A model generated the notes under the pieces. That model had not been told where the DNA came from. It ran no database searches and saw only the letters and a program-made list of their open reading frames with translations. DNA of 64,000 nucleotides from Tsukamurella ocularis (lineage in GTDB: Bacteria > Actinomycetota > Actinomycetes > Mycobacteriales > Mycobacteriaceae): NCBI RefSeq assembly GCF_024807615.1, contig NZ_JANUCJ010000003.1, forward strand, positions 186,001-250,000, given 5' to 3'. Made by a program: the position numbers and the translations under genes. Below, piece by piece: positions 1-63,470 of this stretch (its first letter is position 1; each line of letters starts with the position of its first letter).

Positions 1-384
1 GCCCGCCCCGAGGCCAAGACCGACATCCTCGTCGGCATCGGCGGTACGCCCGAGGGCATCATCGCCGCGGCCGCACTGCGCTGCATGGGCGGCGAGATCC
101 AGGGCACCCTGGCACCGTCGAACGACGTCGAGAAGCAGCGCCTCGCCGACCTGGGCATCGACCCGACGCAGGTGCTCGGCACCACCGACCTGGTGCGCGG
201 CGAGCACGTCTACTTCGCGGCGACCGGCGTCACCGACGGTGACCTGCTGCGCGGCGTCCGCTACCGCGCCGACGGCGCGACCACGCAGTCGATCGTGATG
301 CGCAGCAAGTCGGGCACCGTCCGCACCGTGGACGCGACGCACCGCCTGACCAAGCTGAAGACCTACGCGCAGATCTTCGACTGA
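1..384 (+). CDS. glpX: Fructose-1,6-bisphosphatase class II, 3' part
   Basis: This is the C-terminal 127 residues of a GlpX-type fructose-1,6-bisphosphatase, the gluconeogenic enzyme that removes the C1 phosphate from fructose 1,6-bisphosphate in the cytosol. The reading frame is open from the first base, so the start lies outside the window. The motif GIGGTPEGI near residues 17-25 is characteristic of the family, and the tail (TYAQIFD) resembles mycobacterial GlpX ends. It is followed after 14 nt by an intrinsic-terminator-like hairpin and then by fumC in the same direction, the order I recall for Rv1099c-Rv1098c. One copy of the iterated nonamer lies at 112-120, read as Ala-Pro-Ser. Confidence 0.93.
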
Positions 385-398
385 GAAGTGATCTTCTC

Positions 399-430
399 CT
401 CGGGCCCTGGGAACATTCCCGGGGCCCGAG
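399..430 (+). terminator. Terminator-like hairpin after glpX
   Basis: A G+C-rich stem pairs 399-413 with 416-430 (one G-T wobble); the apex must open to about 4 nt. It is followed by TAGGTTTCT, which is either a weak U-tract or the -10 hexamer of fumC (TAGGTT 431-436, 8 nt before the ATG). Confidence 0.6.
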
Positions 431-444
431 TAGGTTTCTAAGGT

Positions 445-1855
<1,411 letters not shown>

Positions 1856-1863
<8 letters not shown>

Positions 1864-2446
1864 GGCTCGCGGCGCCGATGGCGCCGTAGGGAGCCGGGGC
1901 GGGCGCGCACGTGCCGTCGGTCGCGAGAGCGGATACGGTGACCGAGCGGGCGCCGTCGAGCGCGATCGAGATGGTCCGCGGCGCGTCCTCGCGCGCGAGC
2001 ACGGAGGCCAGCTTCGTCGAGCCGTCGACGATGAAGGAGACGCGCACTCGCAAATCCCGCGGGGTGTGCGGCTGCAGTCCCAGGACTCCGGTGAGCTTCG
2101 CGAACTCACCTGCGAGCCGGTAGACGGCAGTCGAGGGGGTGCCCTCGCAGCCGATCCAGACGCCGGTCGCGCTACGATAGGTGGTGCCTGCGAGAGTGGC
2201 GGTCAGGGCCTGGCCCGTATCGCCGACGGTGCTGGACCTGGCCAGGCGGGTGTAGAGCGGCGTGCCCGTGGGCGTCGCGCCGATGTCACCCTGCGTGAAT
2301 GACGAGTCCCTCGCAGTCTTCGCCTCTACGCTGCGCGAACCCGGGTACGCGTCGTTCGGCGACGCGACCTGCAGTCCGCAGCCGACGATGGCGGACGTGG
2401 CCGCGGCCGCCATCGTCAGTGCTGTGAAACTTGTTCTCAATCTCAC
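1856..2446 (-). CDS. Putative secreted lipoprotein, unknown function
   Basis: A 196-aa protein of no family I recognise. I start it at the GTG at 2446 because this gives a compact signal peptide: Arg-rich N-terminus, hydrophobic stretch, and a lipobox-like IVGC at residues 21-24. A longer frame to 2518 exists, but its extra 24 residues would spoil the signal. The mature part has short beta-rich segments and two further Cys (in IGCEG and GTCAP) that could form a disulfide. It converges on fumC with an 8-bp overlap, so the two transcripts probably overlap. A copy of the nonamer lies at 2224-2232. Extracytoplasmic location is inferred; function is unknown. Confidence 0.6.
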
Positions 2447-3441: not shown

Positions 3442-3451
3442 CGAGACGAGC

Positions 3452-3482
3452 GGCGCACCGTCGAACCCGATCACGGTGCGCC
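3452..3482. terminator. Bidirectional hairpin built from inverted nonamer copies
   Basis: A perfect 10-bp stem GGCGCACCGT (3452-3461) / ACGGTGCGCC (3473-3482) with an 11-nt loop lies between two convergent genes. The left arm contains a full GCACCGTCG and the right arm its partial inverse. There is no U-tract on either strand. Confidence 0.55.
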
Positions 3483-5184: not shown

Positions 5185-5263
5185 GTAACGAGGGTATTCC
5201 CCGGCGGATCACCGGTCCGGGTTAGGTTGCCCTACCTGCGGGAACCCGGGCTCGACGGTGCCG

Positions 5264-5707
5264 TCAGCGCAGAGCCGGGATCGCGAGGCCCACGGCGGCC
5301 GCGACGCTGAGCCACAGACGCGCCAGGTTCCATACACCCCAGTTACGCGCGAACTCGGCCCATTCGACGGTGCCCGTCATGAGCCGCTGGTTCAGGGGGA
5401 CGTTCACCGCCACCGTGAGGACGAACGCCGCGATCGCACAGAGCGCCCCCAGTGCACCCGCGACCGTCCGGGCATCGAAACCGTCCGCGATCACCAGAGC
5501 GATGGCGGCCACGACCGGCAGCAGCGCCCCCAGCATGAAGAGCGCGAGGAACGGTGGCCGCTCGACCGCGTCGTTCATGCGGCGCATGGCCTCGGCACCG
5601 TCGGGGACGGCGCGCTGGGCTGTGATGACGGTGGCGTAGGCGAAGTAGAAGCCGGCCAAAACCCCGCTGAGCAGGGCGGCCGATCCGAGGAGGAATTTGA
5701 GTGTCAT
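5264..5707 (-). CDS. DUF1772 family membrane protein
   Basis: A 147-aa integral membrane protein with about four helices. The N-terminal segment GVLAGFYFAYA and the C-terminal WNLARLWLS are typical of the DUF1772 / anthrone-oxygenase-like family, whose bacterial function is not established. It is divergent from the AraC-type regulator at 5788, and an 8-bp inverted repeat (5706-5713 / 5736-5743) covers its start codon, so it is probably the target of that regulator (inference). Three nonamer copies lie at 5253, 5365 and 5595. Confidence 0.75.
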   Translation of the reverse strand: MTLKFLLGSAALLSGVLAGFYFAYATVITAQRAVPDGAEAMRRMNDAVERPPFLALFMLGALLPVVAAIALVIADGFDARTVAGALGALCAIAAFVLTVAVNVPLNQRLMTGTVEWAEFARNWGVWNLARLWLSVAAAVGLAIPALR

Positions 5708-5787: not shown

Positions 5788-6717
5788 ATGGACCCGCTGT
5801 TCCGGATGGTGTCCGGTCTTCGCGCGCACGGCCTGTTCTCGCTTCGCATCTCGATGGTGCCGCCGTGGTCGGTGGACATCGACGACGGTGCGCCGCTGAG
5901 CGTGATCGCCGTCGACCGCGGCGCCGCGTGGATCTCCGGTGCGGACACCCGGATCCGGCTCGAGGCGGGTGCCGTCGCGCTGGTCGCGCACGGGCCGCAC
6001 TACGTCGTCGCGGATGAGCCCGAACGCCCGCCGACTGTGCGGATCGAGGAGGGCGGCGCGTGCATACCGCTCACCGAGTCGATGCGCTCGACCACCCACC
6101 GCGGCCTGCTCACCTGGGGCAACCACGACGAGGGCCCGGATCAGCTGTTGGTCGGCACGTACGCCTCGGCCTCCCAGGTGGGCCGGCACCTCGTCGAACA
6201 GCTCCCCGAGTTCACGGTGCTGCCGCCCGGCGAGGTCGACGACGCGCTGATCGGGCTGATACGGCGCGAGCTCGCGGATCCGCGCCCCGGGCACAGTTTC
6301 GTCATCGACCGGCTCCTCGACGTCGTGGTCTGCGTCGCGATCCGGTCGGCCGCGCGTACTGCCCCGACGGGCTGGCTGTCGGGCACCGTCGACGACGTGG
6401 TCGCGGGCGCGCTGGACCTGATCCACGAGTCGCCGGAGCGGCCGTGGACGGTCGCCTCCCTGGCCGGCGCGCTGCACGTCTCCCGGGCCGGCCTGGCGGC
6501 GCGGTTCCGCGCCGGCGTGGGCGAGCCGCCCGGCCGCTACCTCACGCTGTGGCGGCTCACCCTGGCGGCCGACGCACTGACCTCGTCGGACGACGGGCTC
6601 GACGCGATCGCCCGCCGCGTGGGTTACGGCTCCGCCTTCGCGCTCAGTGCCGCGTTCAAACGCCACCACGGAGCGAGCCCGTCCCAGTTCCGCGCCCGCG
6701 AGGCCGCCGTCAGCTGA
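5788..6717 (+). CDS. AraC family regulator with cupin sensor domain
   Basis: A 309-aa transcription factor. The N-terminal ~170 residues form an AraC-type cupin ligand domain (MDPLFRMVSGLRAHGLFS, then SVIAVDRGAAWI). The C-terminal ~100 residues hold two helix-turn-helices: WTVASLAGALHVSRAGLAAR and LDAIARRVGYGSAFALSAAF, ending in the usual HHGASPSQFR. Start ATG 5788 has TAATCT at 5776-5781, 6 nt upstream, and no Shine-Dalgarno. It is divergent from the DUF1772 membrane gene it likely controls, and it overlaps the convergent membrane gene by 8 bp. The inducer is unknown. Confidence 0.88.
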   Translation: MDPLFRMVSGLRAHGLFSLRISMVPPWSVDIDDGAPLSVIAVDRGAAWISGADTRIRLEAGAVALVAHGPHYVVADEPERPPTVRIEEGGACIPLTESMRSTTHRGLLTWGNHDEGPDQLLVGTYASASQVGRHLVEQLPEFTVLPPGEVDDALIGLIRRELADPRPGHSFVIDRLLDVVVCVAIRSAARTAPTGWLSGTVDDVVAGALDLIHESPERPWTVASLAGALHVSRAGLAARFRAGVGEPPGRYLTLWRLTLAADALTSSDDGLDAIARRVGYGSAFALSAAFKRHHGASPSQFRAREAAVS

Positions 6718-8035: not shown

Positions 8036-8382
8036 GCGAGCCCCGGGTGCGGCGCACCGTCGGACCAGAGACCGTCGAGGGCGGCACTGACGACCCGCCA
8101 CTGGTCCCGACGGTCCGCGAGCGCCTCCCGTCCGGCGGGCGTGATGGCGTAGTGCTTGCGCTTGCGGCCGGTGTCGGCCACGCCCCACCGCGATTCGACG
8201 TGCCCGAGGCGCTCGAGCCGGTGCAGCAGCGGATAGAGCATGCCGTCGGACCACTCCAGCCGCCCGCCGGAGAGCTCGCGGACGCGGGTGAGAATCGCGT
8301 ACCCGTAACTGTCGCCGCGGCTGAGGATGCTCAGCACCAGCGGGGTCGCCGACGCGGCAACCAGATCCTTATCGATGTGCAT
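8032..8382 (-). CDS. PadR family transcriptional repressor
   Basis: A 116-aa winged-helix regulator. SYGYAILTRV followed by GMLYPLLHRLERLGHVESRW is the canonical PadR helix-wing region, and HYAITPAGREAL closes the domain. The ATG at 8382 has a strong GGGGGAG Shine-Dalgarno 2-3 nt upstream; an in-frame extension exists but is unsupported. Immediately upstream are two palindromes of the same geometry (ATACCT-N9-AGGTAT), probably autoregulatory operators. It is first in an operon with the membrane protein at 6710-8035. The ligand is unknown. Confidence 0.88.
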   Translation of the reverse strand: MHIDKDLVAASATPLVLSILSRGDSYGYAILTRVRELSGGRLEWSDGMLYPLLHRLERLGHVESRWGVADTGRKRKHYAITPAGREALADRRDQWRVVSAALDGLWSDGAPHPGLA

Positions 8383-9771: not shown

Positions 9772-11079
9772 CTATGCGCCGGGGGCGAACTCCTCCAGCA
9801 TCTCGGTGACGAGGGCGGCGATCGGCGAGCGCTCGGAACGCGTGAGCGTGACGTGCGCGAACAGCGGGTGGCCCTTGAGCTTCTCGATCACCGCAGCCAC
9901 GCCGTCATGCCGGCCGACGCGCAGGTTGTCGCGCTGGGCGACGTCGTGCGTGAGCACCACCCGCGAACCCGAGCCGAGCCGCGAGAGCACCGTCAGCAGC
10001 ACGTTGCGCTCCAGGGACTGCGCCTCGTCGACGATGACGAAAGAGTCGTGCAGCGAGCGGCCGCGGATATGGGTGAGCGGCAGCACCTCCAGCATCCCGC
10101 GCGACATCACCTCGTCCATCACCTCGGGCGAGGCGAGCCCGTCGAGGGTGTCGTAGACGGCCTGCGCCCACGGCCCCATCTTCTCGTTCTCGGAGCCGGG
10201 CAGGTAGCCGAGGTCCTGGCCGCCGACGGCGTAGAGCGGGCGGAAGACGACGACCTTGCGCTGCGTCCGCTTCTCCAGCACGGCCTCCAGGCCGGCGCAG
10301 AGCGCCAGCGCCGACTTGCCGGTGCCGGCCTTGCCTCCGAGGGAGACGATGCCCACCGACTCGTCGAGCAGCAGGTCGAGGGCGACGCGCTGCTCTGCGC
10401 TGCGGCCGTGCAGCCCGAAGGCCTCGCGGTCGCCGCGCACGAGCTGCAGCTGCTTCTCCGCCGTCACGCGGCCCAGAGCACTCGACGTTCCTCCGAGCAG
10501 CCGCACGCCGGTGTTGCACGGGAGGTCCCGCGCGGCGTCGTGATCAACGACCCCGCCCGCGAACAGCGCGTCGATCACTTCGCGCGGAACCTCCAGCTCC
10601 TCCATACCGGTCCAGCCGGAGGTCACCACGTCCTGCGCCCGGTACTCGTCCGCGTCGAGACCCACCGCGCCGGCCTTGACCCGGAGCGGGATGTCCTTCG
10701 AGACCAGCACCACGTCGCGGCCCTCGGCGCGCAGGTTGAGCGCGCAGGCGAGGATGCGGGCGTCGTTGGTCTCCGTGCGGAAACCGACCGGCAGCACCGT
10801 CGGATCGATGTGGTTGAGCTCGACCTGGACCGTGCCCCCGCCCGGGGTGGGGATCGGCTGGTCGAGTCGGCCGTGCTCGAGCCGCAGGTCGTCGAGCATG
10901 CGCAGGGACTCGCGGGCGAACCAGCCGAGTTCGGCGTGGTGACGCTTGCCCTCGAGTTCGCTGATCACCACGAGCGGGAGCACGACATCGTGCTCGGCGA
11001 AACGGGTGATGGCCCAGGGATCGGACAGCAGGACGGAGGTGTCGAGCACGTATGTGCGGGGGGTCTCACGGAAAGACAC
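9772..11079 (-). CDS. phoH2: PIN-PhoH fusion (PhoH2-type RNA helicase/nuclease)
   Basis: A 435-aa cytosolic protein. The N-terminal PIN domain begins [16 protein letters not shown], with the conserved acidic residues of a PIN RNase. The C-terminal PhoH ATPase has Walker [14 protein letters not shown] and Walker [11 protein letters not shown]. Mycobacterial PhoH2 couples 5'-3' RNA unwinding with cleavage. The start is the GTG at 11079, preceded by AGGAG (11087-11091) at 7 nt; the frame is open to 11109 but without a better start. In mycobacteria an antitoxin gene (phoAT) precedes phoH2. Here I see only two very short overlapping frames (11158-11258). Convergent with the acetyltransferase across a long hairpin. 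Confidence 0.9.
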
Positions 11080-12317: not shown

Positions 12318-13616
12318 TCAGCGCGAGAGCAGGCCCCAGTCCTCGAGGCCCTCGTACAGCGGGACCTCGAGCGCCAACGCGGAGACGCGGGCGCGCAGCG
12401 CTGCGGTGTCGGCGGCCTTGCCCTGCGCGAGGGCGGTGCCGATGATGTCGGCGACCTCGGTGAACTCCTTCTCACCGAAGCCACGGCTGGCCAGGGCGGC
12501 CGTGCCGATCCGCAGGCCCGAGGTGACCATCGGCGGGCGCGGGTCGAAGGGGACGGCGTTGCGGTTGACGGTGATGCCGACCTCGTGCAGGAGGTCCTCG
12601 GCCTGTTGACCGTCGAGGTCACTGTTGCGCAGGTCGACGAGCACGAGGTGCACGTCGGTGCCGCCGGTGAGCACGGTGATGCCGGCGTCAGCGACGTCCT
12701 TACCGTTCAGCCGCTCGGCGAGGATCTTGGCACCGTCGAGCGTGCGCTGCTGCTTCTCCCGGAACTCCTCCGTGCCCGCGACCTTGAGCGCAACAGCCTT
12801 AGCGGCGATCACGTGCATGAGCGGGCCGCCCTGCTGGCCGGGGAAGACAGCGGAGTTGAGCTTCTTGGCCCACTCCTGCTTCGCCAGGATGATGCCGGAG
12901 CGGGGCCCGCCCAGCGTCTTGTGCACGGTGGAGCTGACGACATCGGCGTGCGGAACGGGACTGGGGTGCAGGCCCGCGGCGACGAGGCCGGCGAAATGCG
13001 CCATGTCGACCCAGAGGTGCGCGCCCACCTCGTCGGCGATGGAGCGGAAGGCGGCGAAGTCGAGCTGCCGCGGGTACGCCGACCAACCGGCGACGATGAC
13101 CTTGGGCTGGGAATCGAGGGCGATCTTGCGCACCTCGTCCATATCGACCCGGTGGTCCTCCTTGGAGACGCCGTAGAAGACGTTCTCGTAGAGCTTGCCC
13201 GAGAAGTTCAGGCGCATGCCGTGGGTGAGGTGGCCGCCGTGCGCGAGGTCGAGGCCCATCAGGGTCTCGCCCGGCTCCATGAGGGCCTGCAGCACGGCCG
13301 CGTTCGCCTGTGCGCCGGAGTGCGGCTGGACGTTGGCGAAGTCGGCGCCGAACAGCTCCTTGGCACGGTTGCGGGCGAGGTCCTCCACCACGTCGACGTA
13401 CTCGCAGCCGCCGTAGTAGCGACGCCCCGGGTAGCCCTCGGCGTACTTGTTGGTGAGCACGGAGCCCTGCGCCTGCAGCACTGCGCGCGGCACGAAGTTC
13501 TCCGAGGCGATCATCTCCAGCGTGTCGCGCTGCCGCGCGAGCTCGCCGTTCATGGCGGCCGCGACCTCGGGATCGAGTTCGGCCAGGGACGCGGAGTTCA
13601 CGCTGGAATCGCTCAT
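12318..13616 (-). CDS. glyA: Serine hydroxymethyltransferase
   Basis: PLP enzyme (432 aa, usual length) that converts serine and tetrahydrofolate to glycine and 5,10-methylene-tetrahydrofolate, the main one-carbon source. The Schiff-base lysine is in [16 protein letters not shown] (near residue 230), and the N-terminal [17 protein letters not shown] is diagnostic. The ATG at 13616 is 9 bp after the stop of the DUF885 gene in the same direction. It has both AGGA at 7 nt and TAGGAT (13623-13628) at 6 nt, the latter inside the upstream stop region, so it may be co-transcribed and also have its own leaderless promoter. Confidence 0.97.
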
Positions 13617-13625
13617 GCGGTCATC

Positions 13626-14837
13626 CTAAGCCGCGAGCTCCCGCCGCAGCGCAGACGGGGTGAGGGGCTCGTCGAGCAGCCTGCCGAACCGGTCCAGCCG
13701 CGCGGGCCCGGAATCGGCGCGATCGAGCCAGGTGCCCAGCAACGCGTAGCCCTCAACGTAGGTGCTGATGTACGCCCGCCACAGCGGCGAGCCGACGAAG
13801 CGCAGCGACTGCCGCGCGCTGCGCTCGGCCATGAGACCCCAGCGCTGCAGGTAAGCGGCCACGTCGTCCTCGCTGGCGCCGCGGTCGTGCAGCAGCAGCG
13901 CGGCGTCCTGCCGCACGTGGAGCAGGCCCGACGAGGCCGCCGCCATCCGCTCGGCGAGCTCCCCGTCGAAGGACAGACCGAGGTCGGCGTAGATCTCCTG
14001 CGCCCAGCGGCCCCAGCCGGGGCCGATCGCGGCATCGAGCGCGTGGTCGGCCAGGCCCTCCGCCATGAGGCACTGCGGGGTGTTGACCAGGAAGATGGTC
14101 TGCTCGGGTTGGTTCTCCCGCGCGACCAGCAGCTGTTCCTTGCGGCAGTGCTCAGTGTGATGGCCCGGGTAGGCCTCGTGCGCGATGAGATGCGGCAGCG
14201 AGGAGAGGTACTGCGGTAGGTCACCGTTGACCGCGACCCGCGAGGTGTAGTCGCCCAGGTAGTAGTTGAAGCCGGACCAGGGCTTGTCGTGCTCGATCTC
14301 GAACCGCACGGTCTCCGCCTCGGGCAGCGGATAGCGCCCGCGCACGACGTCCCGCAACGCGCCGGCCAGCGCGTCCACCACCTCGGGCACGCGCTCGGCG
14401 GGCACCAGGAAGCGGTCGCGCTGGGCCTGCATGCGGGGCTGGAGCGAGCCCGCCCCGGGCAGGATCTCGTCGAGCGCGGCGTGCGCCGCCTCGTAGTCGG
14501 CGGTGTCTCCCATGGCGATGTCGACGTCGAAGTAGGCCTTCACCTCGTCGACGAAGCCGATCGGCGCACCGTCGAACTTGCGCGCCGAGCACTCGAGCGC
14601 GGCGACGTGCCCGGCCAGGAATTCGCGCCGCGGCGCGGTGAGCGCGGTGTCGGCGGCGACGTCGCGCAGCAGGGTGTGGGCCTCGGCGGCGAGGCGGGCG
14701 GGTTCGGGCGCGTCCTCGGCCTCCACCGCCCGACGGTGCGCCGGGTCGCCGAAGTAGGCGTCCACGAAACCGGATTCGATGCGGTCGAACCGCAGGCCCA
14801 GCCGCAGGTAACGGTCGGTGACGCTCAGCTCCTCCAT
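13626..14837 (-). CDS. DUF885 family putative zinc metallopeptidase
   Basis: A 403-aa protein with the HEAYPGHHTEH motif (around residue 215), the HExxH-like zinc site of DUF885 enzymes. No signal peptide is seen, so it is probably cytosolic. The substrate is unknown; the family is assigned to peptidases by structure. The ATG at 14837 has TAGTCT (14845-14850) 7 nt upstream, indicating leaderless transcription, and an in-frame extension to 15122 would run across coaA. It is the likely first gene of a unit with glyA, and is divergent from coaA. Confidence 0.8.
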   Translation of the reverse strand: MEELSVTDRYLRLGLRFDRIESGFVDAYFGDPAHRRAVEAEDAPEPARLAAEAHTLLRDVAADTALTAPRREFLAGHVAALECSARKFDGAPIGFVDEVKAYFDVDIAMGDTADYEAAHAALDEILPGAGSLQPRMQAQRDRFLVPAERVPEVVDALAGALRDVVRGRYPLPEAETVRFEIEHDKPWSGFNYYLGDYTSRVAVNGDLPQYLSSLPHLIAHEAYPGHHTEHCRKEQLLVARENQPEQTIFLVNTPQCLMAEGLADHALDAAIGPGWGRWAQEIYADLGLSFDGELAERMAAASSGLLHVRQDAALLLHDRGASEDDVAAYLQRWGLMAERSARQSLRFVGSPLWRAYISTYVEGYALLGTWLDRADSGPARLDRFGRLLDEPLTPSALRRELAA

Positions 14838-15806: not shown

Positions 15807-15851
15807 CGGTCCGCGCCCGGCCACGCACCGTCGCGCCTACGATCGGTCACC

Positions 15852-31096: not shown

Positions 31097-31111
31097 GCTC
31101 CCCAGCACCGT

Positions 31112-50953: not shown

Positions 50954-53292
50954 CCGCCCCCGAGCCCGTCAAGGCCACCATCGACGGCATCGAGATCGAA
51001 GTCCCCCCGGGCACCCTCGTGATCCGCGCTGCCGAGGATCTGGGGATCGCGATCCCCCGGTTCTGCGATCACCCGCTGCTCGCCCCGGCGGGCGCGTGCC
51101 GGCAGTGCCTGGTGGACGTGGAGGGGCAGCGCAAGCCGCTGGCCTCCTGCACCACGACGGTGACCGACGGCATGGTCGTGCGCACGCAGGCCACCTCCGC
51201 CGCCGCGGCCGGCGCGCAGCGCAGCGTGATGGAGCTGCTGCTGGTGAACCACCCGCTGGACTGCCCGGTGTGCGACAAGGGCGGCGAGTGCCCGCTGCAG
51301 AACCAGGCGATGTCCGCTGGCCGTGCCACGTCGCGCTTCCCGGCCGCCGACAAGCGCACCTACCCCAAGCCGATCCCACTCTCGGCGGAGATCGTGCTCG
51401 ATCGCGAGCGCTGCGTGCTGTGCGCCCGGTGCACCCGCTTCTCCGACGAGATCGCGGGCGACGACTTCATCGAGCTCATGGATCGCGGTGCGCTGCAACA
51501 GGTGGGCGTCGCGGGCGATCAACCGCTCGACTCCTACTTCTCCGGTAACGCCGTGCAGATCTGCCCCGTCGGCGCGCTCACCAACACCGCCTACCGCTTC
51601 CGTGCCCGTCCCTTCGACCTCACCTCCACCCCGTCGGCGTGCGAGCACTGCGCCAGCGGCTGCAGCCTGCGGGTGGACCACCGTCGAGGCGAGGTCCTGC
51701 GCCGCCTCGCGGGCGACGACCCCGAGGTCAACGAGGAGTGGAGCTGCGACAAGGGCCGCTGGGCCTTCGCGTACGTCGCCGCGCCGGACCGCCTCACCAC
51801 GCCGCTCGTCCGCGGGGCCGACGGTGCCCTCGTCCCCGCGTCCTGGCCCGAGGCGATCGCGGCCGCCGCGCAGGGCCTGACCGGGCGCACCGCGGGCGTC
51901 CTCGCCGGCGGGCGCGGCACCGTCGAGGACCTCTACGCCTACTCCGCGTTCGCGCGCATCGCCCTGCGCACCAACGACATCGACTTCCGGATCCGGCCGC
52001 ACAGCGCGGAGGAGGCGGCGTTCCTGGCCTCCGGAGTGGTCGGCGGGGTGACCTACGCCGATCTCGAGGCGGCGCCGGTCGTGCTGCTCGCGGGCTTCGA
52101 ACCCGAGGAGGAGTCGCCCATCGTGCACCTCCGGCTGCGGAAGTCGGTGCGCGCCGGCGGCACCCGGGTGCTGTCCATCGCCCCGTTCGCCTCCCGCGGC
52201 CTGGGCCGCCTCGACGGCACCCTCCTCGCCTGCGCCCCCGGCGCCGAGCCCGCCGCCCTCGCCGACCCCGCGCTGGCGCAGCAACTCTCCGTGCCCGGCG
52301 CGGTGATCCTCGTCGGCGAGCGACTCGCCGAGACCCCCGAGGCCCTCGCCGCGGCGGCGGCGCTCGCGGCCACCAGCGGCGCCCGGCTGGCATGGATCCC
52401 GCGCCGCGCGGGCGAGCCCGGCGCGATCGCCGCAGGCGCGCTGGCCGGGATGCTGCCCGGCGGCCGCCTGACCGCCAACTACGCCCACCGCATGGAGGTC
52501 GAGGCGCTGTGGGGCGTCACGCTGCCCGACGGCCCCGGCCGCGACACCGCCGGCATCCTCGCCGCCGCCGCGTCGGGCGACCTCCCCGCCCTGGTGTGCG
52601 GCGCGGTCGACATCGGCGACCTGCCCGACCCCGAGGCCGCGCGCCGCGCCCTCGATGCCACGTTCGTGGTGAGCCTCGAGCAGCGGGAGTCCGAGGTCAC
52701 CGCCCGCGCCGACGTGGTGCTTCCCGTCGCCACCGTGACACAGCGCGCCGGCACGTTCCGGAACTGGGAGGGCCGCGACCGCTCCTTCGCCGCGGCGCTC
52801 CCCTCGCCCGGTGCGCTCTCCGACGCGCGGGTCCTCGCGGTACTCGCGCAGTCGATGCGCGCGGACCTCGGCTTCACCGACACCGACGGTGCCTCCGCCG
52901 CGCTGCGCACGCTGGGCTCGGTCCGACCGCCGCACCGCCCCATCTCCGGGCATCCCGCCGCCGTCGCCGCCCCGGGGGACGGGGAGGCGCTGCTCGCGAC
53001 GTGGCGGCAGCTGCTCGACCTTGGGCGTGGACAGGACGGGGAACGCGATCTGGCGGCGACCGCGCGACGGCCAGTCGCGCGGATGTCGGCGGCCACCGCG
53101 ACCGGGATCCTCGCCGCGGACGGCGACGACGTGTCGATCTCGACAGAGCGCGGCACGATCACCCTGCCGCTCCAGGTGACCGACATGCCCGACGGCGTGG
53201 TGTGGGTGCCCCGGAACTCGCCCGGCAGCACCGTCGGCGAGACACTGGGCGTCGGCTGGGGTGCAGTGGTCGGGATCGCGGTGGCCCGATGA
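50950..53292 (+). CDS. nuoG: NADH-quinone oxidoreductase subunit G
   Basis: A 780-aa iron-sulfur subunit. Ligands: N1b [2Fe-2S] Cys39, Cys50, Cys53, Cys67; the His101/Cys105/Cys108/Cys114 cluster; two further ferredoxin-like motifs ([19 protein letters not shown]); and the N7 motif CEHCASGC with a later Cys in WSCDKGRW. The C-terminal ~450 residues are a molybdopterin-oxidoreductase fold without its cofactor. Four nonamers lie within (51819, 51917, 52884, 53228). The minus strand is open for long stretches opposite, a composition artefact. Confidence 0.95.
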
Positions 53293-54605
53293 TGAGCGCC
53301 CTCGGACCGCACGCCCCTGTCGATCTCTCCGCGTTCGGCCGCGATCCCTGGTGGCTGATCCTGCTCAAGGCCGTCGCGGTCTTCGCCTTCCTGGTGCTGA
53401 CGGTGCTCGCCGCGATCCTCATCGAGCGTAAGGTCATGGCCCGAATGCAGCACCGGTACGGACCGAACCGACTGGGGCCCTTCGGCATCCTGCAGTCGCT
53501 CGCGGACGGCATCAAGCTGGCGCTCAAGGAGGGCATCACGCCCGCCGGGGTGGATAAGCCCGTCTACCTGCTCGCGCCGATCATCGCCACCATCCCCGCG
53601 TTCATGGCCTTCGCCGTGATCCCGTTCGGGCCGCAGGTGTCGGTGTTCGGGACGTGGACGCCGCTCCAGCTCACCGATCTTCCGGTGGCGGTGCTGTACG
53701 TCCTCGCGATCACCAGCATCGGCGTGTACGGCATCGTGCTGGCCGGCTGGTCCTCCGGCTCCACCTATCCGCTGCTCGGCGGCCTGCGCTCCACGGCCCA
53801 GGTGATCAGCTACGAGGTCGCGATGGGCCTGAGCTTCGCCGCCGTCTTCCTGTATGCGGGCACGATGGCCACGTCGGGCATCGTCGCCCGTCAGGAGGGC
53901 ACCTGGTACGTCTTCCTGCTGCTGCCCTCGTTCGTCGTGTACGTGGTCTCGATGGTCGGCGAGACGAACCGCGCGCCCTTCGACCTTCCCGAGGCCGAGG
54001 GCGAGCTGGTGGGCGGCTTCCACACCGAGTACAGCTCGTTGAAGTTCGCGATGTTCATGCTCGCGGAGTACGTCAACATGACCACCGTCTCCGCACTCGC
54101 CACCACGCTGTTCCTCGGCGGCTGGCACGCGCCGTGGCCGTTGAACATGTGGGAGGGCGCGAATTCCGGCTGGTGGCCGGTGGTCTGGTTCGTGGGCAAG
54201 GTGTGGTGCTTCCTGTTCGCCTTCATCTGGCTGCGCACCACGCTGCCGCGCCTGCGGTACGACCAGTTCATGCGGTTCGGCTGGCAGCTGCTGATCCCGA
54301 CCGCGCTGGCCTGGGTGTTGGTCGCCGGCGCGGTGCAGGCGTGGGCCCTCGCCGGGCATTCGACGACGGTGCTGGCCCCGGCGGTCTCGCTGCTCTTCAC
54401 GCTCGCGGTGCTCGCGGTCCTGGTGGCGCGGCACCGTCGGCAGAAGGCGCCCGAGCCCGGCCCGGATCCCGAGACCTTCTCGCTGCCCTTCGATCCGATG
54501 GCCGGCGGCTTCCCCGTGCCGCCCATGCCCGGCCAGTACCTGTCCGAGCCCGCCCGACGTGCCCTGCCGCGCGAGGCCGAAGCGAAGGAGGCGTCCCATG
54601 GCTGA
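53289..54605 (+). CDS. nuoH: NADH-quinone oxidoreductase subunit H
   Basis: A 438-aa membrane subunit of about nine helices at the quinone tunnel. [20 protein letters not shown] and [20 protein letters not shown] are the family signatures. It has a ~60-residue Pro-rich cytosolic C-terminal tail. ATG 53289 overlaps the nuoG stop; ATG 53292 is possible. Ends 5 bp past the nuoI start. Confidence 0.96.
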
Positions 54606-55101: not shown

Positions 55102-55889
55102 CCGGAGAGGAGTGGGCGTTCTGGATCGTCGCGGTGCCCGCGGTGGTCTTCGCCCTGGGCGTGGTCCTGGCCTCCAAGGCCGTGTACTCGGCGCTGTGCC
55201 TGGCCGCCACCATGATCCTGCTCGCGATCCTGTACATCTCGCAAGGCGCGACCTTCCTCGGCGTCGTCCAGATCGTGGTCTACACCGGCGCCGTGATGAT
55301 GCTCTTCCTGTTCGTGGTCATGCTCGTGGGCGTCGACTCCTCCGACTCGCTCGTCGAGACCCTGCGCGGGCACCGGATCGGGGCCGCCGTCGCGGGTCTC
55401 GCCTTCGGGATGCTGCTCATCGGACTCGTGGCCCGGGCCTCCCTGCGGGACGTCGGCGCCGGAACCGCACGGGGACCGGGATCGGGCGACTACCCGCCGA
55501 ACTCCGTGGAGGCCCTGGCCGACACCGTCTTCGTGCGCTACCTGTGGGCCTTCGAACTCACCGCCGCGCTGCTCATCACCGCCACGCTGGGCGCGATGAT
55601 CCTCGCGCACCGGGAGAAGCTGGCCACCGCGCTCAGTCAGCGTGAGCAGTCGATCCGCCGGTTCCGCGAGGGCCACCGCGCCACGCCGCTCCCCAACCCC
55701 GGCGTCTACGCGCTGGGCAACGCCGTCGACCTGCCGGCCCGGTTGCCCGACGGGACGCCCGCGCTCGACTCCGTCAACCACACACTCGCCCCGCGCGTGC
55801 CGGGCGAGCGGCGGGCGCTTCCCGACCGCGCACCGTCGCTCGACGACGAGGTTCCGCACGCGCTCCGCGACGAGGAGGTGTCGCCGTGA
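55098..55889 (+). CDS. nuoJ: NADH-quinone oxidoreductase subunit J
   Basis: A 263-aa membrane subunit: five helices in the first ~175 residues ([20 protein letters not shown] is the signature, part of the pi-bulge helix) and a ~90-residue hydrophilic, Pro-rich C-terminal tail, as in actinobacterial NuoJ. ATG 55098 overlaps nuoI. Confidence 0.95.
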
Positions 55890-56188: not shown

Positions 56189-58066
56189 GTGACCGTACTC
56201 ATCGCGGCTCTGCCGCTGATCCCCCTCGCCGGAGCGGCGGTGCTGCTGCTCGGCGGACGCCGGACGAACGCCTGGGGGCACCTGTTCGGGACCGCGGTCG
56301 CGGCGCTGTCCTTCGTCGTCGCGGCCGTCGCCTTCGGCCTGCTCCTGGCCCGTGCCGGCGCGAACCGATCCGTGGGCACCGTCCTCTACCACTGGTTCTC
56401 GGGCGGTGACCTCGCGGTGGACCTCGCCTTCCGGCTGGATCAGCTGTCGGTGTGTTTCGCGCTGCTGATCACGGGCGTGGGCACGCTGATCCACGTCTAC
56501 TCGATCGGCTACATGGAGACCGATCCGGGCCGGCGACGGTTCTTCGGCTACCTCAACCTGTTCCTCGGCGCGATGCTGGTGCTGGTGCTCGCGGACGACC
56601 TCGTGGTGCTCTATCTCGGCTGGGAGGGCGTGGGACTCGCGTCCTACCTGCTCATCGGCTTCTGGCAGCACAAGCCCTCGGCCGCGACCGCCGCGCGGAA
56701 AGCCTTCATCGTCAACCGCGTCGGCGACATGGGCCTGGCGCTCGCGGTCGCGGTCACCCTCATGACCTTCGGCACCACCACCTTCGGCGAGTTCCTCCCC
56801 CGCGCCGATGAGGCAGGCGAGGGCGTGCTGACCTGGCTCGGGCTCCTCCTCCTGCTCGCCGCATGCGCCAAGTCCGCGCAGGTGCCGCTGCAGAGCTGGC
56901 TCGGCGACGCGATGGAAGGCCCCACGCCCGTCTCCGCCCTGATCCACGCCGCGACGATGGTCACCGCGGGCGTCTACCTGATCGTGCGCACCGGCCCCAT
57001 CTTCGAAGCGGCACCGGTGGCGCAGGGTTTCGTGCTCGCCGTCGGCGCGGTGACGCTGCTCTTCGGCGCCGTGATCGGCTGCGCGAAGGACGACATCAAG
57101 AAGGCTCTGGCCGCATCGACCATGAGCCAGATCGGCTACATGGTGCTCGCCGCCGGGCTCGGTCCCGCGGGTTACGCCCTGGCGATCGCACACCTGTTGG
57201 CGCACGGCTGCTTCAAGGCCGGCCTGTTCCTGGGCGCGGGCTCGGTGATGCACGGGATGAACGACGAGACGGACATGCGCAGGTACGGCGGCCTGGCGAA
57301 GATCATGCCGGTCACCGCGGTCACCTTCGGCCTGGGCTACCTGGCGATCATCGGCGTCCCGCCGCTGTCGGGCTTCTTCACCAAGGACGGGATCATCGAG
57401 GCCGCGCTGGGCCGCGGCGGATTCCAGGGCGTCGTGCTGGGCGGCGCGGCGATCCTCGGTGCCGGGATCACGGGCTTCTACATGACGCGGGTGATGGTGC
57501 TGACCTTCTTCGGCGCGCGCCGCTGGCGCGAGGGCACGCATCCGCACGAGTCGCCGCGGGTGATGACCGCGCCCATGGTCGTGCTGGCGCTCGGCAGCGT
57601 CGGCGCGGGCGCACTCCTGGTGATCGGCGGCACGCTGTCCGACTTCCTCGCCCCCGCAGTCGGATCCGCGCCCGAAACGCACCACGCCATCCCCGCCTGG
57701 GCGGTCACCCTGCTGGCCCTCGGCGCCGTCGCGATCGGCGTCGCGGTGGCGGTCCGCCTGACGCGGACGGTGCCCGTGGAGGCACCGTCGGCGGTGAGCG
57801 CCCTGACTCGGGCGGCCCGCCAGGACCTGTACGGCGACGCGCTCAACGAGGCAGTGCTCATGCGCCCCGGGCAGGCCGCCACCGAGGCGCTGCTCTTCGC
57901 CGAGCGCAAGGGCATCGACGGTGCGGTCGACGCGATCCCCGCGGGCGTGCACCTCGGCTCGCTCCTGCTGCGGCGCTCGCAGACCGGGTACGCGCGCAGC
58001 TACGCGCTGACCATGCTAGCCGGGACGGCGGTGCTCATCGGCGCCGCGGCGGCGTGGCTCTCATGA
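56189..58066 (+). CDS. nuoL: NADH-quinone oxidoreductase subunit L
   Basis: A 625-aa proton-pumping antiporter-like subunit with about 16 helices and the long lateral helix. [37 protein letters not shown] and [16 protein letters not shown] hold the conserved Glu, Lys and His. GTG 56189, 3 bp after nuoK. Confidence 0.96.
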
Positions 58067-59541
58067 GCGGGCCGTGGCTGACGCTGCTGTGGGCGGCGCC
58101 GGCGGTCGGCGCCGTCGCCGCCGCGGCCGTGCCCCGGGCGGCGCGGTGGATCGGGCTGGCGGCGGCGCTCGTCGCGCTGGTGATCGGCATCGGGCTGGCG
58201 TTCGCCTTCGACCCCGCGGGCGGCTTCCAGTTCATCGAATCGCATTCCTGGATACCGTCCTTCGGCGCGGGCTACCGGCTCGGACTCGACGGCACCGGGC
58301 TGGTGCTGGTGCTGCTCACCGCCGCCCTGCTGCCGGTCCTCCTCCTCGCCGCGTGGCGCGAGACCGCGCCCGAGAGCGCACGCGCCGGCACCTACGTCGC
58401 GCTCACGCTCGCTGTCGAGTCGATGGTGCTCGTCAGCTTCGTGACGACAGACGTGCTGCTGTTCTACCTGGTCTTCGAGGCCATGCTGATCCCGCTGTAC
58501 TTCCTCCTGGCCGGGTTCGGCGGCACGGGAAGCGATTCCGCGGTCCGCACGCACACGGCCGTGAAGTTCCTGCTCTACAACCTCGCCGGCGGGCTCATCA
58601 TGCTGGCCGCGGTCGTCGCACTGTACGCCGCGTCCGGCACCTTCGACCTGCGCGCCCTGCTCGATGGTGCGCGGCCCGGCCCCGGGATCGGGCAGGACCT
58701 GATGTTCCTGGGTTTCCTGTTCGCCTTCGCGGTGAAGGCGCCCCTATGGCCGCTGCACACCTGGCTGCCGGGCGCGGCGGTGCAGACGAATCCCCCGACG
58801 GCCGTGTTGATGATGGCGATCGTCGACAAGGTGGGCACCTTCGCGATGCTGCGCTACTGCCTCACGCTGTTCCCCGACGCGGCGGCCCGCTGCGCGCCGT
58901 GGGTCGCGGCGCTGGCGGTGATCGGCATCGTCTACGGCGCGATCCTCGCGATCGGGCAGTCGGACGTGATGTCGCTGATCGCGTACACGTCGATCAGCCA
59001 CTTCGGCTTCATCATCCTCGGAGTCTTCGCGCGCACCGGCGATTCGCAGGCCGGCTCGGTGCTCTACATGGTCAACCACGGCGTCGCGACGGCGGCGCTC
59101 TTCCTCACCGCCGGCGTCCTGGTGGCCCGCCGCGGAAGCCGCCAGATCGGCGACTTCGGCGGCGCCTGGTCCCGGGCGCCGAAGCTGGGCGCGATCTTCC
59201 TCATCGCGGGCCTGGCGACCCTCTCGCTGCCCGGCCTCGGCCCCTTCGTCTCCGAACTCCTGGTGGTGGTCGGCACCTACCCGCGGTGGGCGCTCGCCGC
59301 GATCGTCTCCGTGGTCGTCCTGGTGCTGTCGGCGATGTACGTGCTGTGGACCTACCAGCGGATGTTCACGGGTCCCGCGCCGGAGGACGTCGAGCGCACC
59401 GTCGACGATGCGCGGCCGCGGGAGCTGCTCGTGCTGGTGCCGCTGGTCGTCGCCCTGTTCCTGCTGGGCTTCTTCCCCTCTCCCGCGCTGGACGCGATCA
59501 ACCCGTCGGTCTCGCCCACGGTCGCGGAGGTCGCCCGATGA
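58063..59541 (+). CDS. nuoM: NADH-quinone oxidoreductase subunit M
   Basis: A 492-aa antiporter-like pump subunit. [16 protein letters not shown] and [17 protein letters not shown] carry the conserved Glu and Lys; [16 protein letters not shown] is typical. ATG 58063 overlaps the nuoL stop. End overlaps nuoN. Confidence 0.96.
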
Positions 59542-61034: not shown

Positions 61035-61349
61035 ATGAGTGACAAGCCGCTTCCGTTCAGCAACGGCCTGCAGTTGAAGCCGATGGGTGCAGTCCTGCTG
61101 CTGGTGCTCGGCGTACTGATCTGGCGGCTGACCGACGCGACCACGACGACGGCGCGGGTGCTGTACATCGCGGCCATCATCTTCGAGCTGCTGTTCTTCG
61201 TCGGCCTGATCTTCGCCAGCCGGTTCATCAAGAAGCAGCACGACCGGGCGGAGGCCGCGTACCGGGCGCAGGTGGCCGCGCAGGCCGAGGCCGCGCGCAA
61301 GCCCGCCGACGGTGCCGCGCCCGAGGCCGGCCCGACGGACGCGCCGTGA
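61035..61349 (+). CDS. Small two-helix membrane protein
   Basis: A 104-aa protein: two transmembrane helices (AVLLLVLGVLIWRLTD and VLYIAAIIFELLFFVGLIF), then a charged, Ala/Pro-rich tail of about 35 residues. No named family recognised. ATG 61035 follows TAGAAT (61021-61026) by 8 nt (leaderless). Its stop overlaps the TetR GTG by 4 bp, so both are co-expressed, like the Rv1019 neighbourhood. Confidence 0.75.
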   Translation: MSDKPLPFSNGLQLKPMGAVLLLVLGVLIWRLTDATTTTARVLYIAAIIFELLFFVGLIFASRFIKKQHDRAEAAYRAQVAAQAEAARKPADGAAPEAGPTDAP

Positions 61350-62038
61350 CCTCCACCGCCAAGCCGAATCGCGCCGCCGGCGCACCGGCGCGGAAGCGGA
61401 TGCCCGCGGCCGAGCGCCGCAACCAGTTGGTCGACACCGCGCGCTCGGTGTTCGCCGACCGCGGCTACGAGGCGGCGACGATCGAGGAGGTCGCCTCGAA
61501 GGCCGGCGTCTCCAAGCCCGTGGTCTACGAGCACTTCGGCGGCAAGGAGGGCCTCTACGCCGTGGTCGTGGACCGCGAGATGGAGATGGTCCTCGAGGTC
61601 TTCTCCCGCGCCATGCTCGAGGACCGATCGAAAACCCGGATCGAGCAGATCGCGCTCGCGCTGCTCACGTACGTCGAGGAGCGGGCGGACGGCTTCCGGA
61701 TCCTCACCCGCAACAGCTCCGTCGAGCACTCGGGCGGCTACTCGACGCTGCTCAACGACCTCGTCGGGCAGGTCGAGAGCCACCTCGAGAGCGAGTTCCT
61801 GAACAAGCACCTCGACCCCGGCCTCGCGCCGCTGTACGCCCAGGCGCTGGTCGGCATGGTCGCCATGACCGCGCAGTGGTGGCTCGAGGTGCGCGACCCG
61901 CCTAAGGAGGCCGTCGCCGCGCACATCGTGAACCTCTCCTGGTACGGCCTCATCGGCCTCAAGGAGAATCCCGTCGCCATCGAGCCGAGCCAGTTGGGCG
62001 AGCTCGACGGCACCGTCGAGCCCGCCACCGGCGCCTGA
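61346..62038 (+). CDS. TetR family regulator (Rv1019-like)
   Basis: A 230-aa TetR protein. HTH: FADRGYEAATIEEVASKAGV followed by SKPVVYEHFGGKEGLYAVVV; C-terminal helical ligand domain with QALVGMVAMTAQWWLEVRDP. Its position close to mfd recalls Rv1019 beside Rv1020. The stop lies 1 bp from the convergent lipase stop, so read-through is likely. A palindrome in the lipase promoter is a possible target. Confidence 0.88.
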   Translation: MTSTAKPNRAAGAPARKRMPAAERRNQLVDTARSVFADRGYEAATIEEVASKAGVSKPVVYEHFGGKEGLYAVVVDREMEMVLEVFSRAMLEDRSKTRIEQIALALLTYVEERADGFRILTRNSSVEHSGGYSTLLNDLVGQVESHLESEFLNKHLDPGLAPLYAQALVGMVAMTAQWWLEVRDPPKEAVAAHIVNLSWYGLIGLKENPVAIEPSQLGELDGTVEPATGA

Positions 62039-62039
62039 C

Positions 62040-63470
62040 CTACCGGGGCCCGGCCCCGATCGGCGCGCCGACCAGCGAGGCGAGAACGGTACCGATCGCC
62101 TGGCCGAAGGTGCCGATCGCCGCGGGCTCGAGCCCGCTGCTGAAGACGTTGCGGATGTCGCAGCCCGACGGTGCCGGGCCGGTCGAGTCCATCCGCTGCT
62201 TGAGCCAGTTGAAGGCGCCGCCCGCGCCGGTCACCACGACGGTGCCGTGGGTGGTCATGAGCTGCTTGACCGGGTTCGGCGGGAACTCCTCGCGGCGGTA
62301 GGTCACGGACGCACCACCCTTGCAGTACGAGTCCACGAGCTTGTCTGTCCCCGTGATCGGGGCGACCTCCTCGGTGATGCCGTTGTAGACGTACGCGGGC
62401 ACCGTCGGGACCCGGCCGCTGACACCGCGCTCGCGGATCGTCTTGGCGATGATCGGGATCCGCAGTACCTCGTCGACCGGCTTCGTCAGCATCCGGTTGT
62501 AGTCGAACCACAGGTTGGCCACGACGTTCTGCGGCATGCAGTGCCGGCGGGTCTCGTTCACACGCGCACGCCCCTCGGGAGTGAGCACCTTGTCCAGGGC
62601 CGCGCGGAACTCCTCGGAGTCCTTGCCGAGCGACGACAGAGCGAGAGGAATGAGACCGGCGAGCAATGAGGTGTTCACGGCCTTGAGCGAGGCGGCGAGG
62701 TCGCGCTCCGGCGCGCCGAAGGCGGCGCCGCGGATGTTGAGTTCCGGCGCATAGGTCGGATGCTCCTCGATGGTCCAGCTGCTGGCGATCGCGCCGCCCG
62801 AGTAACCCCACAGCGTGACGGGAGTCTTCGCGCTCAGCCCGAGGCGGGAGAAGTTCTCCACCGCCCGGATGCCGTCCAGCACGGCCCAGCCCGGCTGGCG
62901 CGGGGTGAGGAAGCGGTCCTCGCCGCCGCCGTGGTCGGGCATCGCGACTGCCCAGCCCTCTTGCACGCCGAGGCCGGCGAACAGCAGCTCCGCGCCGGGC
63001 ATGCCGAAGGTGAGCGGCCCCTCCTTCGCCGCCAGGTCGATGGGGCCGCCCTTGGTCGTCGCGTACGAGGACTGGCAGATCCGCAGGGTCGAGTCCGCGG
63101 CCGCCTGGTAGGAGAGCAACTTCGTGGGCTTCTTGCCGCGCGGCACCATCACGGTGGTCACGCTGAGATCGGGCTCGCCGTTCATGCCCGTGGTCCGGTA
63201 GGCCAGCTGCCAGGCGTCCACGTTGAGCGGCATCACCTGCAGCGACCGGATCGACGTGCTGCGCGTGCGCACGATCTCGCCTGGCTTGAGCGCCGCAAGG
63301 TCCGCGGGCCGGTCGTAGAACCCGTCGGTGGGCGGCGCCGGTTCGACAAGGGGCGGCAGCGCCTGGGCGCTCGGGGCGGTCGCGATCCCCATCACGATCA
63401 CGAGGACGGCGCCGATCAGCGCCGCGAGGACACGCGATCCCATCCGGAACGCTGATGTTTCATTCACCAT
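62040..63470 (-). CDS. Secreted lipase of the fungal-type LIP family
   Basis: A 476-aa alpha/beta hydrolase of the secretory lipase family (PF03583-like). The nucleophile elbow is LWGYSGGAIASSW; YQAAADSTLRICQSSYA and AYVYNGITEEVAPI (with the catalytic Asp/His region following) are typical. The Sec signal is MGSRVLAALIGAVLVIVMGI and cleavage is likely after AQA. ATG 63470 has TAAGTT (63479-63484) 8 nt upstream; ATG 63443 would also keep the signal. An 18-bp palindrome abuts the -10. Target: esters or triacylglycerols outside the cell (inference). Confidence 0.88.
   Translation of the reverse strand: MVNETSAFRMGSRVLAALIGAVLVIVMGIATAPSAQALPPLVEPAPPTDGFYDRPADLAALKPGEIVRTRSTSIRSLQVMPLNVDAWQLAYRTTGMNGEPDLSVTTVMVPRGKKPTKLLSYQAAADSTLRICQSSYATTKGGPIDLAAKEGPLTFGMPGAELLFAGLGVQEGWAVAMPDHGGGEDRFLTPRQPGWAVLDGIRAVENFSRLGLSAKTPVTLWGYSGGAIASSWTIEEHPTYAPELNIRGAAFGAPERDLAASLKAVNTSLLAGLIPLALSSLGKDSEEFRAALDKVLTPEGRARVNETRRHCMPQNVVANLWFDYNRMLTKPVDEVLRIPIIAKTIRERGVSGRVPTVPAYVYNGITEEVAPITGTDKLVDSYCKGGASVTYRREEFPPNPVKQLMTTHGTVVVTGAGGAFNWLKQRMDSTGPAPSGCDIRNVFSSGLEPAAIGTFGQAIGTVLASLVGAPIGAGPR

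What the first reader, a model, noticed from the sequence alone, without database searches (positions are those of the whole stretch)
112..62407. Highly iterated nonamer GCACCGTCG across the whole window
I count at least 48 copies (25 in one orientation, 23 in the other), about one per 1.3 kb. A zero-order estimate at about 68% G+C predicts roughly two in 64 kb on both strands. Copies fall in all reading frames (for example Ala-Pro-Ser at 112 and 57782, Thr-Val at 51917 and 59396, His-Arg-Arg at 54431, Asp-Gly-Ala at 51819 and 52884) and use otherwise uncommon codons such as GCA and GGT. A shared protein motif therefore cannot explain them; selection or copying at the DNA level can. The next base is mostly a purine. 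The near-equal orientations argue against a strand-polar signal such as KOPS or Chi. Candidates: a DNA-uptake-like sequence, an iterated element like cyanobacterial HIP1, a methylation or nucleoid-protein site.
Basis: partly seen in the sequence, partly recalled or inferred. Interest (0 to 1): 0.88.

Follow-up and report, generated by a model that had tools for sequence, protein, structure and literature searches.

The report
Tsukamurella's genome-wide nine-base DNA mark
Bacteria of the genus Tsukamurella carry one nine-letter DNA word roughly eight hundred to four thousand times per genome, kept on both strands whatever protein the DNA encodes, which points to an undescribed machine that reads this word as a mark of the cell's own DNA.

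Summary
The window holds 48 exact copies of GCACCGTCG (25 +, 23 -); shuffles give 3.4, a third-order Markov model 6.7. It is Tsukamurella DNA. Its own genome has 2,598 copies in 4.31 Mb; the 16 genus genomes have 827-4,002, and 45 others of the family or order 51-713. Of 296 class genomes only the two Tsukamurella exceed about 177 per Mb. The word is DNA-level: with proteins and codon usage fixed, 695 copies stand where 104 are expected, in all six frames, and it is enriched between genes; its synonymous codons are conserved between species. It is unpolarised and randomly spaced; prophage-like cores are poor in it. None of three methyltransferase families tested is in all 16 genomes. Some other actinobacterial genera have different iterated words. 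Chi-like, nucleoid-protein and repair-driven readings stay open. Two Tsukamurella phages enriched about fourfold count against a pure uptake role.

The parts
112..120 (+). copy of GCACCGTCG (Ala-Pro-Ser frame)
2224..2232 (-). copy
3455..3463 (+). copy
5253..5261 (-). copy
5365..5373 (-). copy
5595..5603 (+). copy
5883..5891 (-). copy
6383..6391 (+). copy
8054..8062 (+). copy
10794..10802 (+). copy
12730..12738 (+). copy
14566..14574 (+). copy
14731..14739 (-). copy
15825..15833 (+). copy
17604..17612 (-). copy
19029..19037 (-). copy
20266..20274 (-). copy
24408..24416 (-). copy
25426..25434 (+). copy
26365..26373 (+). copy
26418..26426 (-). copy
27638..27646 (-). copy
28026..28034 (+). copy
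31105..31113 (+). copy
33267..33275 (+). copy
35745..35753 (+). copy
38036..38044 (-). copy
38745..38753 (-). copy
40743..40751 (-). copy
41547..41555 (-). copy
44486..44494 (-). copy
44736..44744 (+). copy
46926..46934 (+). copy
51819..51827 (-). copy (Asp-Gly-Ala frame)
51917..51925 (+). copy (Thr-Val frame)
52884..52892 (-). copy (Asp-Gly-Ala frame)
53228..53236 (+). copy
54364..54372 (-). copy
54431..54439 (+). copy (His-Arg-Arg frame)
55830..55838 (+). copy
57782..57790 (+). copy (Ala-Pro-Ser frame)
57916..57924 (-). copy
59396..59404 (+). copy (Thr-Val frame)
61307..61315 (-). copy
62010..62018 (+). copy
62166..62174 (-). copy
62237..62245 (-). copy
62399..62407 (+). copy

Best explanation
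SHOWN: GCACCGTCG (best extended form GGCACCGTCGR) is a genus-wide, orientation-neutral iterated DNA word of Tsukamurella, maintained at the DNA level independently of the encoded protein, and poor in the cores of prophage-like regions. INFERRED: it is a mark of own-lineage DNA, read by a sequence-specific protein of the cell during DNA exchange, and works like the DNA uptake sequences of Neisseriaceae and Pasteurellaceae. Fragments that carry the mark would be taken up or recombined more often, so copies accumulate and are re-fixed across the chromosome. The reader protein is not identified. ComEA and ComEC, the general uptake channel, look intact in this genome, but ComEC is also in relatives without the mark, so a separate reader would be needed.
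For: Size, density and distribution resemble uptake sequences: 9-11 bp; 827-4,002 copies in 16 of 16 genus genomes, against 2,245-3,603 copies in four genomes quoted in the passages of PMC3630211 that I saw. Both orientations. All frames: 695 against 104 in coding DNA, 45 against 4.5 between genes. Random spacing (272 gaps, CV 1.05). Edge positions tolerate changes more than inner ones, as in the uptake-sequence passages. Synonymous conservation: GCA 0.63 inside against 0.09 outside, GGT 0.45 against 0.13. Prophage-like DNA is poor in it: 7 sites in 60 kb of cores centred on terminase genes against 37 in 60 kb of their flanks (six regions, a seventh of 5.6 kb left out). Strong expansion seen only in this genus within a class sample of 296 genomes. 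Some other genera have different words, reminiscent of dialects. comEA and comEC are present.
Against: Two Tsukamurella phages, lytic TPA2 (17 against 4.3) and temperate TPA4 (19 against 4.9), are enriched about fourfold (first 50 kb of each). Of four TPA2 relatives in Gordonia and Mycobacterium three are at expectation and one is mildly above (Mariokart 7 against 3.3, largest shuffle 6); relatives of TPA4 were not tested. A lytic phage should gain nothing from transformation (inference). The phage copies lack the chromosomal flank preference (T before: 6 of 36 against 14 of 695; purine after: 16 of 36 against 498 of 695) and follow the phages' own codon null there, so the phage signal may have another cause. 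ComEC is in 60 of 61 genomes with or without the mark. No transformation data for Tsukamurella were seen; no DNA-binding pilin was sought. Eleven stretches of other Mycobacteriales show a weak excess too (17 against 8.8, largest shuffle 15), so part of the ratio is a null-model artefact.
Confidence: 0.35

Rival explanations
1. Chi-like regulator site: a helicase-nuclease (RecBCD, or the actinobacterial AdnAB) changes from degrading to recombining when it meets the word, so own DNA is spared and repaired.
For: A RecC domain is in 16 of 16 Tsukamurella genomes and recC, recB and recD stand side by side in this genome. Two phages that live in Tsukamurella carry the word above expectation. The word read as GACGGTGC shares GGTG with E. 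coli Chi GCTGGTGG (Chi as given). PMC8022716 says that true Chi motifs need not be polarised to be functional.
Against: No strand polarity, while polarity is one of the detection criteria for Chi in PMC8022716. RecC is also in 18 of 45 related genomes, of which the densest has 167 copies of the word per Mb (by hand), and in only 2 of 13 genomes chosen for the other words (12 of the 13 are of word-bearing groups), so RecBCD cannot explain the wider pattern. Phage copies lack the flank preference. AdnAB was not searched for.
Confidence: 0.2
2. Binding site of an abundant chromosome-organising (nucleoid) protein, needed about once per 1-2 kb.
For: Use of both strands, coding and non-coding DNA; random spacing; tolerant edges; separate contigs that may be plasmids carry it too.
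Against: Two phages carry excess copies. No excess of sites outside genes (24 of 293 sites where 8.6 percent of the DNA is). I recall no nucleoid protein of this order with such a site.
Confidence: 0.2
3. Repair- or methylation-driven word without selected function, as proposed for cyanobacterial HIP1 (mismatch repair guided by methylated sites creates and keeps the word).
For: Density near one per kb resembles HIP1 (PMC4390886, abstract and first part of section 3.4). Copies are also in excess in two phages.
Against: The word is not a palindrome. DNA_methylase PF00145 is missing in 2 of 16 genomes that are rich in the word (G011 3,261 and G015 2,136 copies), PF02384 in 4 of 16 and PF01555 in 12 of 16. 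Other methyltransferase families were not searched.
Confidence: 0.15
4. By-product of protein motifs, codon bias or codon-pair bias.
For: Other Mycobacteriales show a weak excess under the same null (17 against 8.8). Codon-pair bias was not modelled.
Against: Codon-preserving shuffles give 104 for 695 observed; all six frames are enriched, and so is non-coding DNA; it is the top 9-mer in both Tsukamurella samples; genus restriction of the strong excess.
Confidence: 0.02

Closest known systems
DNA uptake sequences of Neisseriaceae (DUS) and Pasteurellaceae (USS)
   Same: Non-palindromic word of about 10 bp, thousands of copies, lineage-specific dialects (PMC3630211, passages; USS recalled); edges more tolerant than inner positions.
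   Different: Actinobacterium; no reader of the ComP kind known; no transformation data; some phages enriched.
HIP1 and alternate HIPs of cyanobacteria
   Same: Iterated octamer at about one per kb, replaced by other words in some genomes (PMC4390886).
   Different: HIP1 is a palindrome linked to methyltransferases; this word is not a palindrome, and none of three tested methyltransferase families is in all 16 genomes.
Chi of RecBCD (GCTGGTGG)
   Same: 8-9 nt word, overrepresented; RecBCD genes are present here.
   Different: No polarity; density higher than that of E. coli Chi (about one per 4-5 kb, recalled).
KOPS
   Same: Short iterated word.
   Different: KOPS is strongly strand-polar (recalled); this word is not.

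Membership tests
DNA uptake sequence (DUS/USS) | about 10-bp word in about 1,000 or more copies on both strands | tested here: met
   (15 of 16 genomes above 1,000; G006 has 827)
DNA uptake sequence (DUS/USS) | DNA carrying it is taken up or transformed preferentially | not testable with these tools
   needs an uptake assay
DNA uptake sequence (DUS/USS) | cognate DNA-binding pilin or receptor such as ComP | not tested
   ComEA (HHH_3) and ComEC were found; no pilin was sought
DNA uptake sequence (DUS/USS) | scarce in recently acquired DNA such as prophages | tested here: inconclusive
   prophage-like cores 7 against flanks 37; phages TPA2 and TPA4 enriched, TIN2 and TIN3 within their shuffles (3 against 1.3, 2 against 1.1)
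HIP1-type iterated palindrome | palindromic word | tested here: not met
   GCACCGTCG differs from its complement CGACGGTGC
HIP1-type iterated palindrome | cognate methyltransferase in the genomes rich in the word | tested here: not met
   three Pfam families only: PF00145 in 14, PF02384 in 12, PF01555 in 4 of 16 genomes; others untested
Chi site | polarity along the leading strand | tested here: not met
   no local polarity: 25/23 in the window; 101/117 over 20 stretches of G004; leading strand not assigned because GC skew is weak
Chi site | genome encodes RecBCD or AddAB/AdnAB | tested here: met
   RecC domain in 16 of 16; recC, recB, recD in G000
Chi site | word attenuates the nuclease and stimulates recombination | not testable with these tools
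   needs biochemistry
KOPS | strong strand polarity | tested here: not met
Nucleoid-protein site | occupied by a chromosomal protein in vivo | not testable with these tools
   needs ChIP or pull-down

The most novel reading that the evidence does not exclude
Actinobacteria have an unrecognised class of lineage-specific self-DNA marks with dialects: Tsukamurella GGCACCGTCGR, Kribbella CGNCGTAC, Salinibacterium CGGCATCCG, Microbacterium sp. MPKO10 CAGCATCCG, Arsenicicoccus CGGCATAC. They would be orientation-neutral and read by one fast-evolving machine, either a competence receptor or the actinobacterial resection motor AdnAB, for which I recall no known Chi.
Probability: 0.35. Interest if true: 0.92.

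Novelty: new variant of a known kind. Interest (0 to 1): 0.78.

Why it matters
Iterated DNA marks of proven function (uptake sequences, Chi) decide which DNA a bacterium accepts or repairs. A mark in thousands of copies in a genus of mycolic-acid bacteria, with different words in Kribbella, Microbacteriaceae and Arsenicicoccus, would open the question of how Actinobacteria tell own DNA from foreign DNA. The words could also serve as a substrate for testing whether AdnAB or actinobacterial RecBCD has a Chi.

Tried and rejected
Protein-motif and codon explanations: rejected by codon-preserving shuffles and by frame, with the caveat that other Mycobacteriales show a weak excess under the same null (17 against 8.8). 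RNA-level signal: rejected, sense 144 and antisense 125. Hairpin or terminator pairs: rejected, 19 spacings under 100 bp where 18.6 are expected. A near-miss-depletion argument for repair drive: dropped, because the depleted neighbours (position 8, and C to G at position 5) contain words such as ACCGTGG and CACGGTC that are depleted generally. RecBCD as a common reader of all the words: rejected, RecC in only 2 of 13 genomes. A different word in the two low-count Tsukamurella genomes: not seen; the nonamer is the top listed 9-mer in a G006 sample (13 against 2.6) and high in G007 (35 against 9.4). Correlation of site density with G+C content of 20-kb stretches: significant in G000 only (rho 0.52, p 0.018), not in G001 or G004.

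Literature: the motif as letters gave 6 papers (all listed) and 78 for the complement (20 listed); the listed titles and abstract starts are not about this word, and 58 of the 78 I did not see. Tsukamurella with motif terms (10 of 10,764 listed), actinobacterial uptake sequences (none), over-represented words and Chi (4) and iterated words (12 of 188 listed) showed nothing on it in the listings. The library is open-access PMC only, so a report elsewhere is possible. Papers: PMC4390886 abstract and first part of section 3.4; PMC8022716 abstract and first part of the Results; PMC3630211 and PMC4972346 passages only; all others as listings.
Full report
WHERE IT IS. The window is bases 186001-250000 of contig 3 of a 4.31-Mb genome. 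The exopolyphosphatase-like gene at 41068-42018 (function recalled from its sequence) finds Tsukamurella sp. M9C at 95 percent identity and eight further Tsukamurella loci. So the window is Tsukamurella DNA, about 70 percent G+C.

IS IT REAL. There are 48 copies, 25 + and 23 -. Expected: 3.4 from dinucleotide shuffles, 6.7 from a third-order Markov model. The genome has 1,317 forward and 1,281 reverse copies; the word read backwards has 34 and 34. The 16 genomes of the genus have between 827 (G006, 5.0 Mb) and 4,002 (G001, 4.9 Mb); 45 other genomes of the family or order have 51 to 713. In a class sample of 296 genomes, 294 of them outside the genus, the densest outsider has about 177 per Mb (G118, 1,112 in 6.3 Mb) against 603 and 681 per Mb in the two Tsukamurella (densities by hand from rounded sizes). 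Overlap must be told: G006 has 165 per Mb, no denser than the best outsiders. In a sample of G006 (63 kb of coding DNA) the word is nonetheless the top listed word, 13 against 2.6.

DNA LEVEL. With proteins kept and synonymous codons permuted, pooled samples of three genomes (464, 319 and 400 kb) give 695 copies in coding DNA against 104. Every frame is enriched: sense 0 x51, sense 1 x3.6, sense 2 x9, antisense 1 x5.9, antisense 2 x9.9, antisense 0 4 copies against 0.2. Non-coding DNA has 45 against 4.5 by second-order Markov. Eleven stretches of other Mycobacteriales give 17 against 8.8 under the same null, so part of the ratio is null-model bias; a fair figure for the genus-specific excess is about three- to fourfold over relatives (my inference). 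Orientation to genes is balanced (144 sense, 125 antisense) and 24 of 293 copies lie outside genes, where 8.6 percent of the DNA is. Spacing is random (272 gaps, CV 1.05; 19 gaps under 100 bp against 18.6 expected). In the one-contig genome G004, 20 stretches give 101 forward and 117 reverse; by hand the heterogeneity chi-square is about 20 on 20 degrees of freedom, so there is no local polarity. GC skew is weak, so I do not assign the leading strand.

CONSERVATION. Two orthologous regions were aligned, 10 and 16 genomes (G006 is in the second with 4.4 kb only). Site by site, GCA inside the word is kept in 0.63 of the other species (6 sites) against 0.09 elsewhere (405 sites); GGT 0.45 (22) against 0.13 (642); GTC 0.85 (15) against 0.51 (1,071); ACG 0.76 (8) against 0.37 (582). 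Eight of nine codon tests have p below 0.01, uncorrected; ACC does not (0.72 against 0.61, p 0.066). Where the word is missing, the change is, by eye, often at position 3 (A to G or C).

SHAPE OF THE WORD. Preferred extension: G before (x7.8; T least, x2.8) and G or A after (x11.3, x6.8). Of the single-base variants, 10 of 12 at positions 1, 2, 4 and 9 are at x1.5 to x3.1. Position 7 gives x1.5 to x1.8, position 6 x1.2 to x1.5, position 3 x1.1 to x1.4, position 5 x0.6 to x1.8, and position 8 x0.5 to x0.7. The depletion is partly a general feature of the genome, and the variants TCACCGTCG and ACACCGTCG are also mildly raised in other Mycobacteriales (19 against 11.2, 16 against 8.2).

MOBILE DNA. 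Terminase (PF03354) genes were found in 5 of 16 genomes. Ten-kb cores around six of them hold 7 sites, their flanks (equal length) 37; that these are prophages is inferred from the terminase alone. Separate contigs that may be plasmids (not tested): G009 C2, 99.8 kb, 0.43 per kb, like its genome (1,911 in 4.5 Mb), with the word ranked first and G preferred before it; G013 C1 0.45 and G005 C1 0.33 per kb, somewhat below their genomes; two 13-kb contigs of G005 1.22 per kb. Phages, first 50 kb each: lytic TPA2 (lytic per a passage of PMC4972346) 17 against 4.3, temperate TPA4 19 against 4.9, TIN2 3 against 1.3, TIN3 2 against 1.1. Relatives of TPA2 in Gordonia and Mycobacterium have 7, 2, 5 and 2 against 3.3, 2.3, 3.0 and 2.5; the 7 lies above the largest of its 100 shuffles (6). 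The Gordonia relative of TIN2 has 0 against 0.7. The word ranks 6th of 1,860 9-mers in TPA2 and 1st of 1,589 in TPA4, but the phage copies lack the chromosomal flank preference. This is the main result against a pure uptake reading, and I do not explain it.

MACHINERY. RecC in 16 of 16 Tsukamurella and 18 of 45 relatives; recC, recB and recD stand together in this genome. ComEC in 60 of 61 genomes; ComEA (SLBB and HHH_3 domains) stands directly before the comEC frame. Methyltransferases: PF00145 in 14, PF02384 in 12 and PF01555 in 4 of 16 genomes; this genome has neither PF02384 nor PF01555. None of these tracks the word.

OTHER GENERA. Of 104 stretches offered, 75 could be tested with the codon null. 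Clear words: Kribbella CGNCGTAC, 911 against 184 in 16 loci, 544 forward and 522 reverse in 17 loci and in all six frames (the 17th, L035, is titled Streptomyces); Microbacterium sp. MPKO10 CAGCATCC, 23 against 1.6, 17 against 0.9 and 24 against 1.4 in three stretches; Salinibacterium CGGCATCC, 81 against 15 in seven loci, one of them titled marine actinobacterium PHSC20C1; Arsenicicoccus CGGCATAC, 16 against 1.3 in two loci and among the top words in all five stretches. The Kribbella and Salinibacterium pools are orthologous loci, so their counts are not independent. Single words reach z values up to about 7 in other loci as well (L124, for example), so recurrence across stretches, not one z value, carries the claim; Arsenicicoccus rests on it. 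Mumia (L053) shows a weaker form of the Kribbella word, 12 against 2.9. Other tested loci, Nocardiopsis among them, show by eye no recurrent word of this strength. The words look alike by eye, but whether they share a reader is speculation.

VERDICT. By anatomy the closest working model is a DNA uptake sequence; membership is not claimed, because no uptake or reader was tested and the phage result does not fit. HIP1 membership fails on palindromy and on the methyltransferases tested; Chi and KOPS fail on polarity, though a non-polar Chi-like role is open. Mechanism confidence is 0.35.

Noticed in passing
Kribbella loci among L013-L038; L039, L040, L042-L044, L051, L052 (Salinibacterium pool); L041, L181, L182 (Microbacterium); L065, L078, L183-L185 (Arsenicicoccus): Other actinobacterial genera have their own iterated words: CGNCGTAC, CGGCATCCG, CAGCATCCG and CGGCATAC.
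   Followed up: partly
L035: Contig titled Streptomyces sp. SID13031 carries the Kribbella word (CGGCGTAC 15 against 2.2) and sits among Kribbella hits; probably a misnamed Kribbella.
   Followed up: no
L009: Contig filed under an Acidobacteriaceae MAG encodes a homologue 69 percent identical to the Tsukamurella protein; probably a mis-binned actinobacterial contig.
   Followed up: no
L220, L221 (13-kb contigs of G005): 32 copies of the word in 26 kb, about twice the density of that genome.
   Followed up: no
G000 stretches L081-L100 and window: CCCGCTAGG/CCTAGCGGG occurs 12 times against 0.6 expected, a second, rarer repeated word containing CTAG.
   Followed up: no
coding sequences of G000, G001 and G004 samples: Runs of six G or C are strongly avoided in genes: CCCCCC/GGGGGG 76 observed against 1,106 by codon shuffle.
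   Followed up: no
L227:2030-7593: The only DNA_methylase (PF00145) match of this genome lies in a stretch that a host-trained gene caller does not call, so its codon use is atypical; perhaps an acquired island.
   Followed up: no
L076: AGTATTCA and TATTCACA occur 17 times each against 0.3 in 18 kb of a Micrococcaceae MAG; perhaps a local repeat array.
   Followed up: no
window 24001-28000 and 56001-60000: Strong AT skew, +0.144 and -0.255, in 4-kb windows.
   Followed up: no
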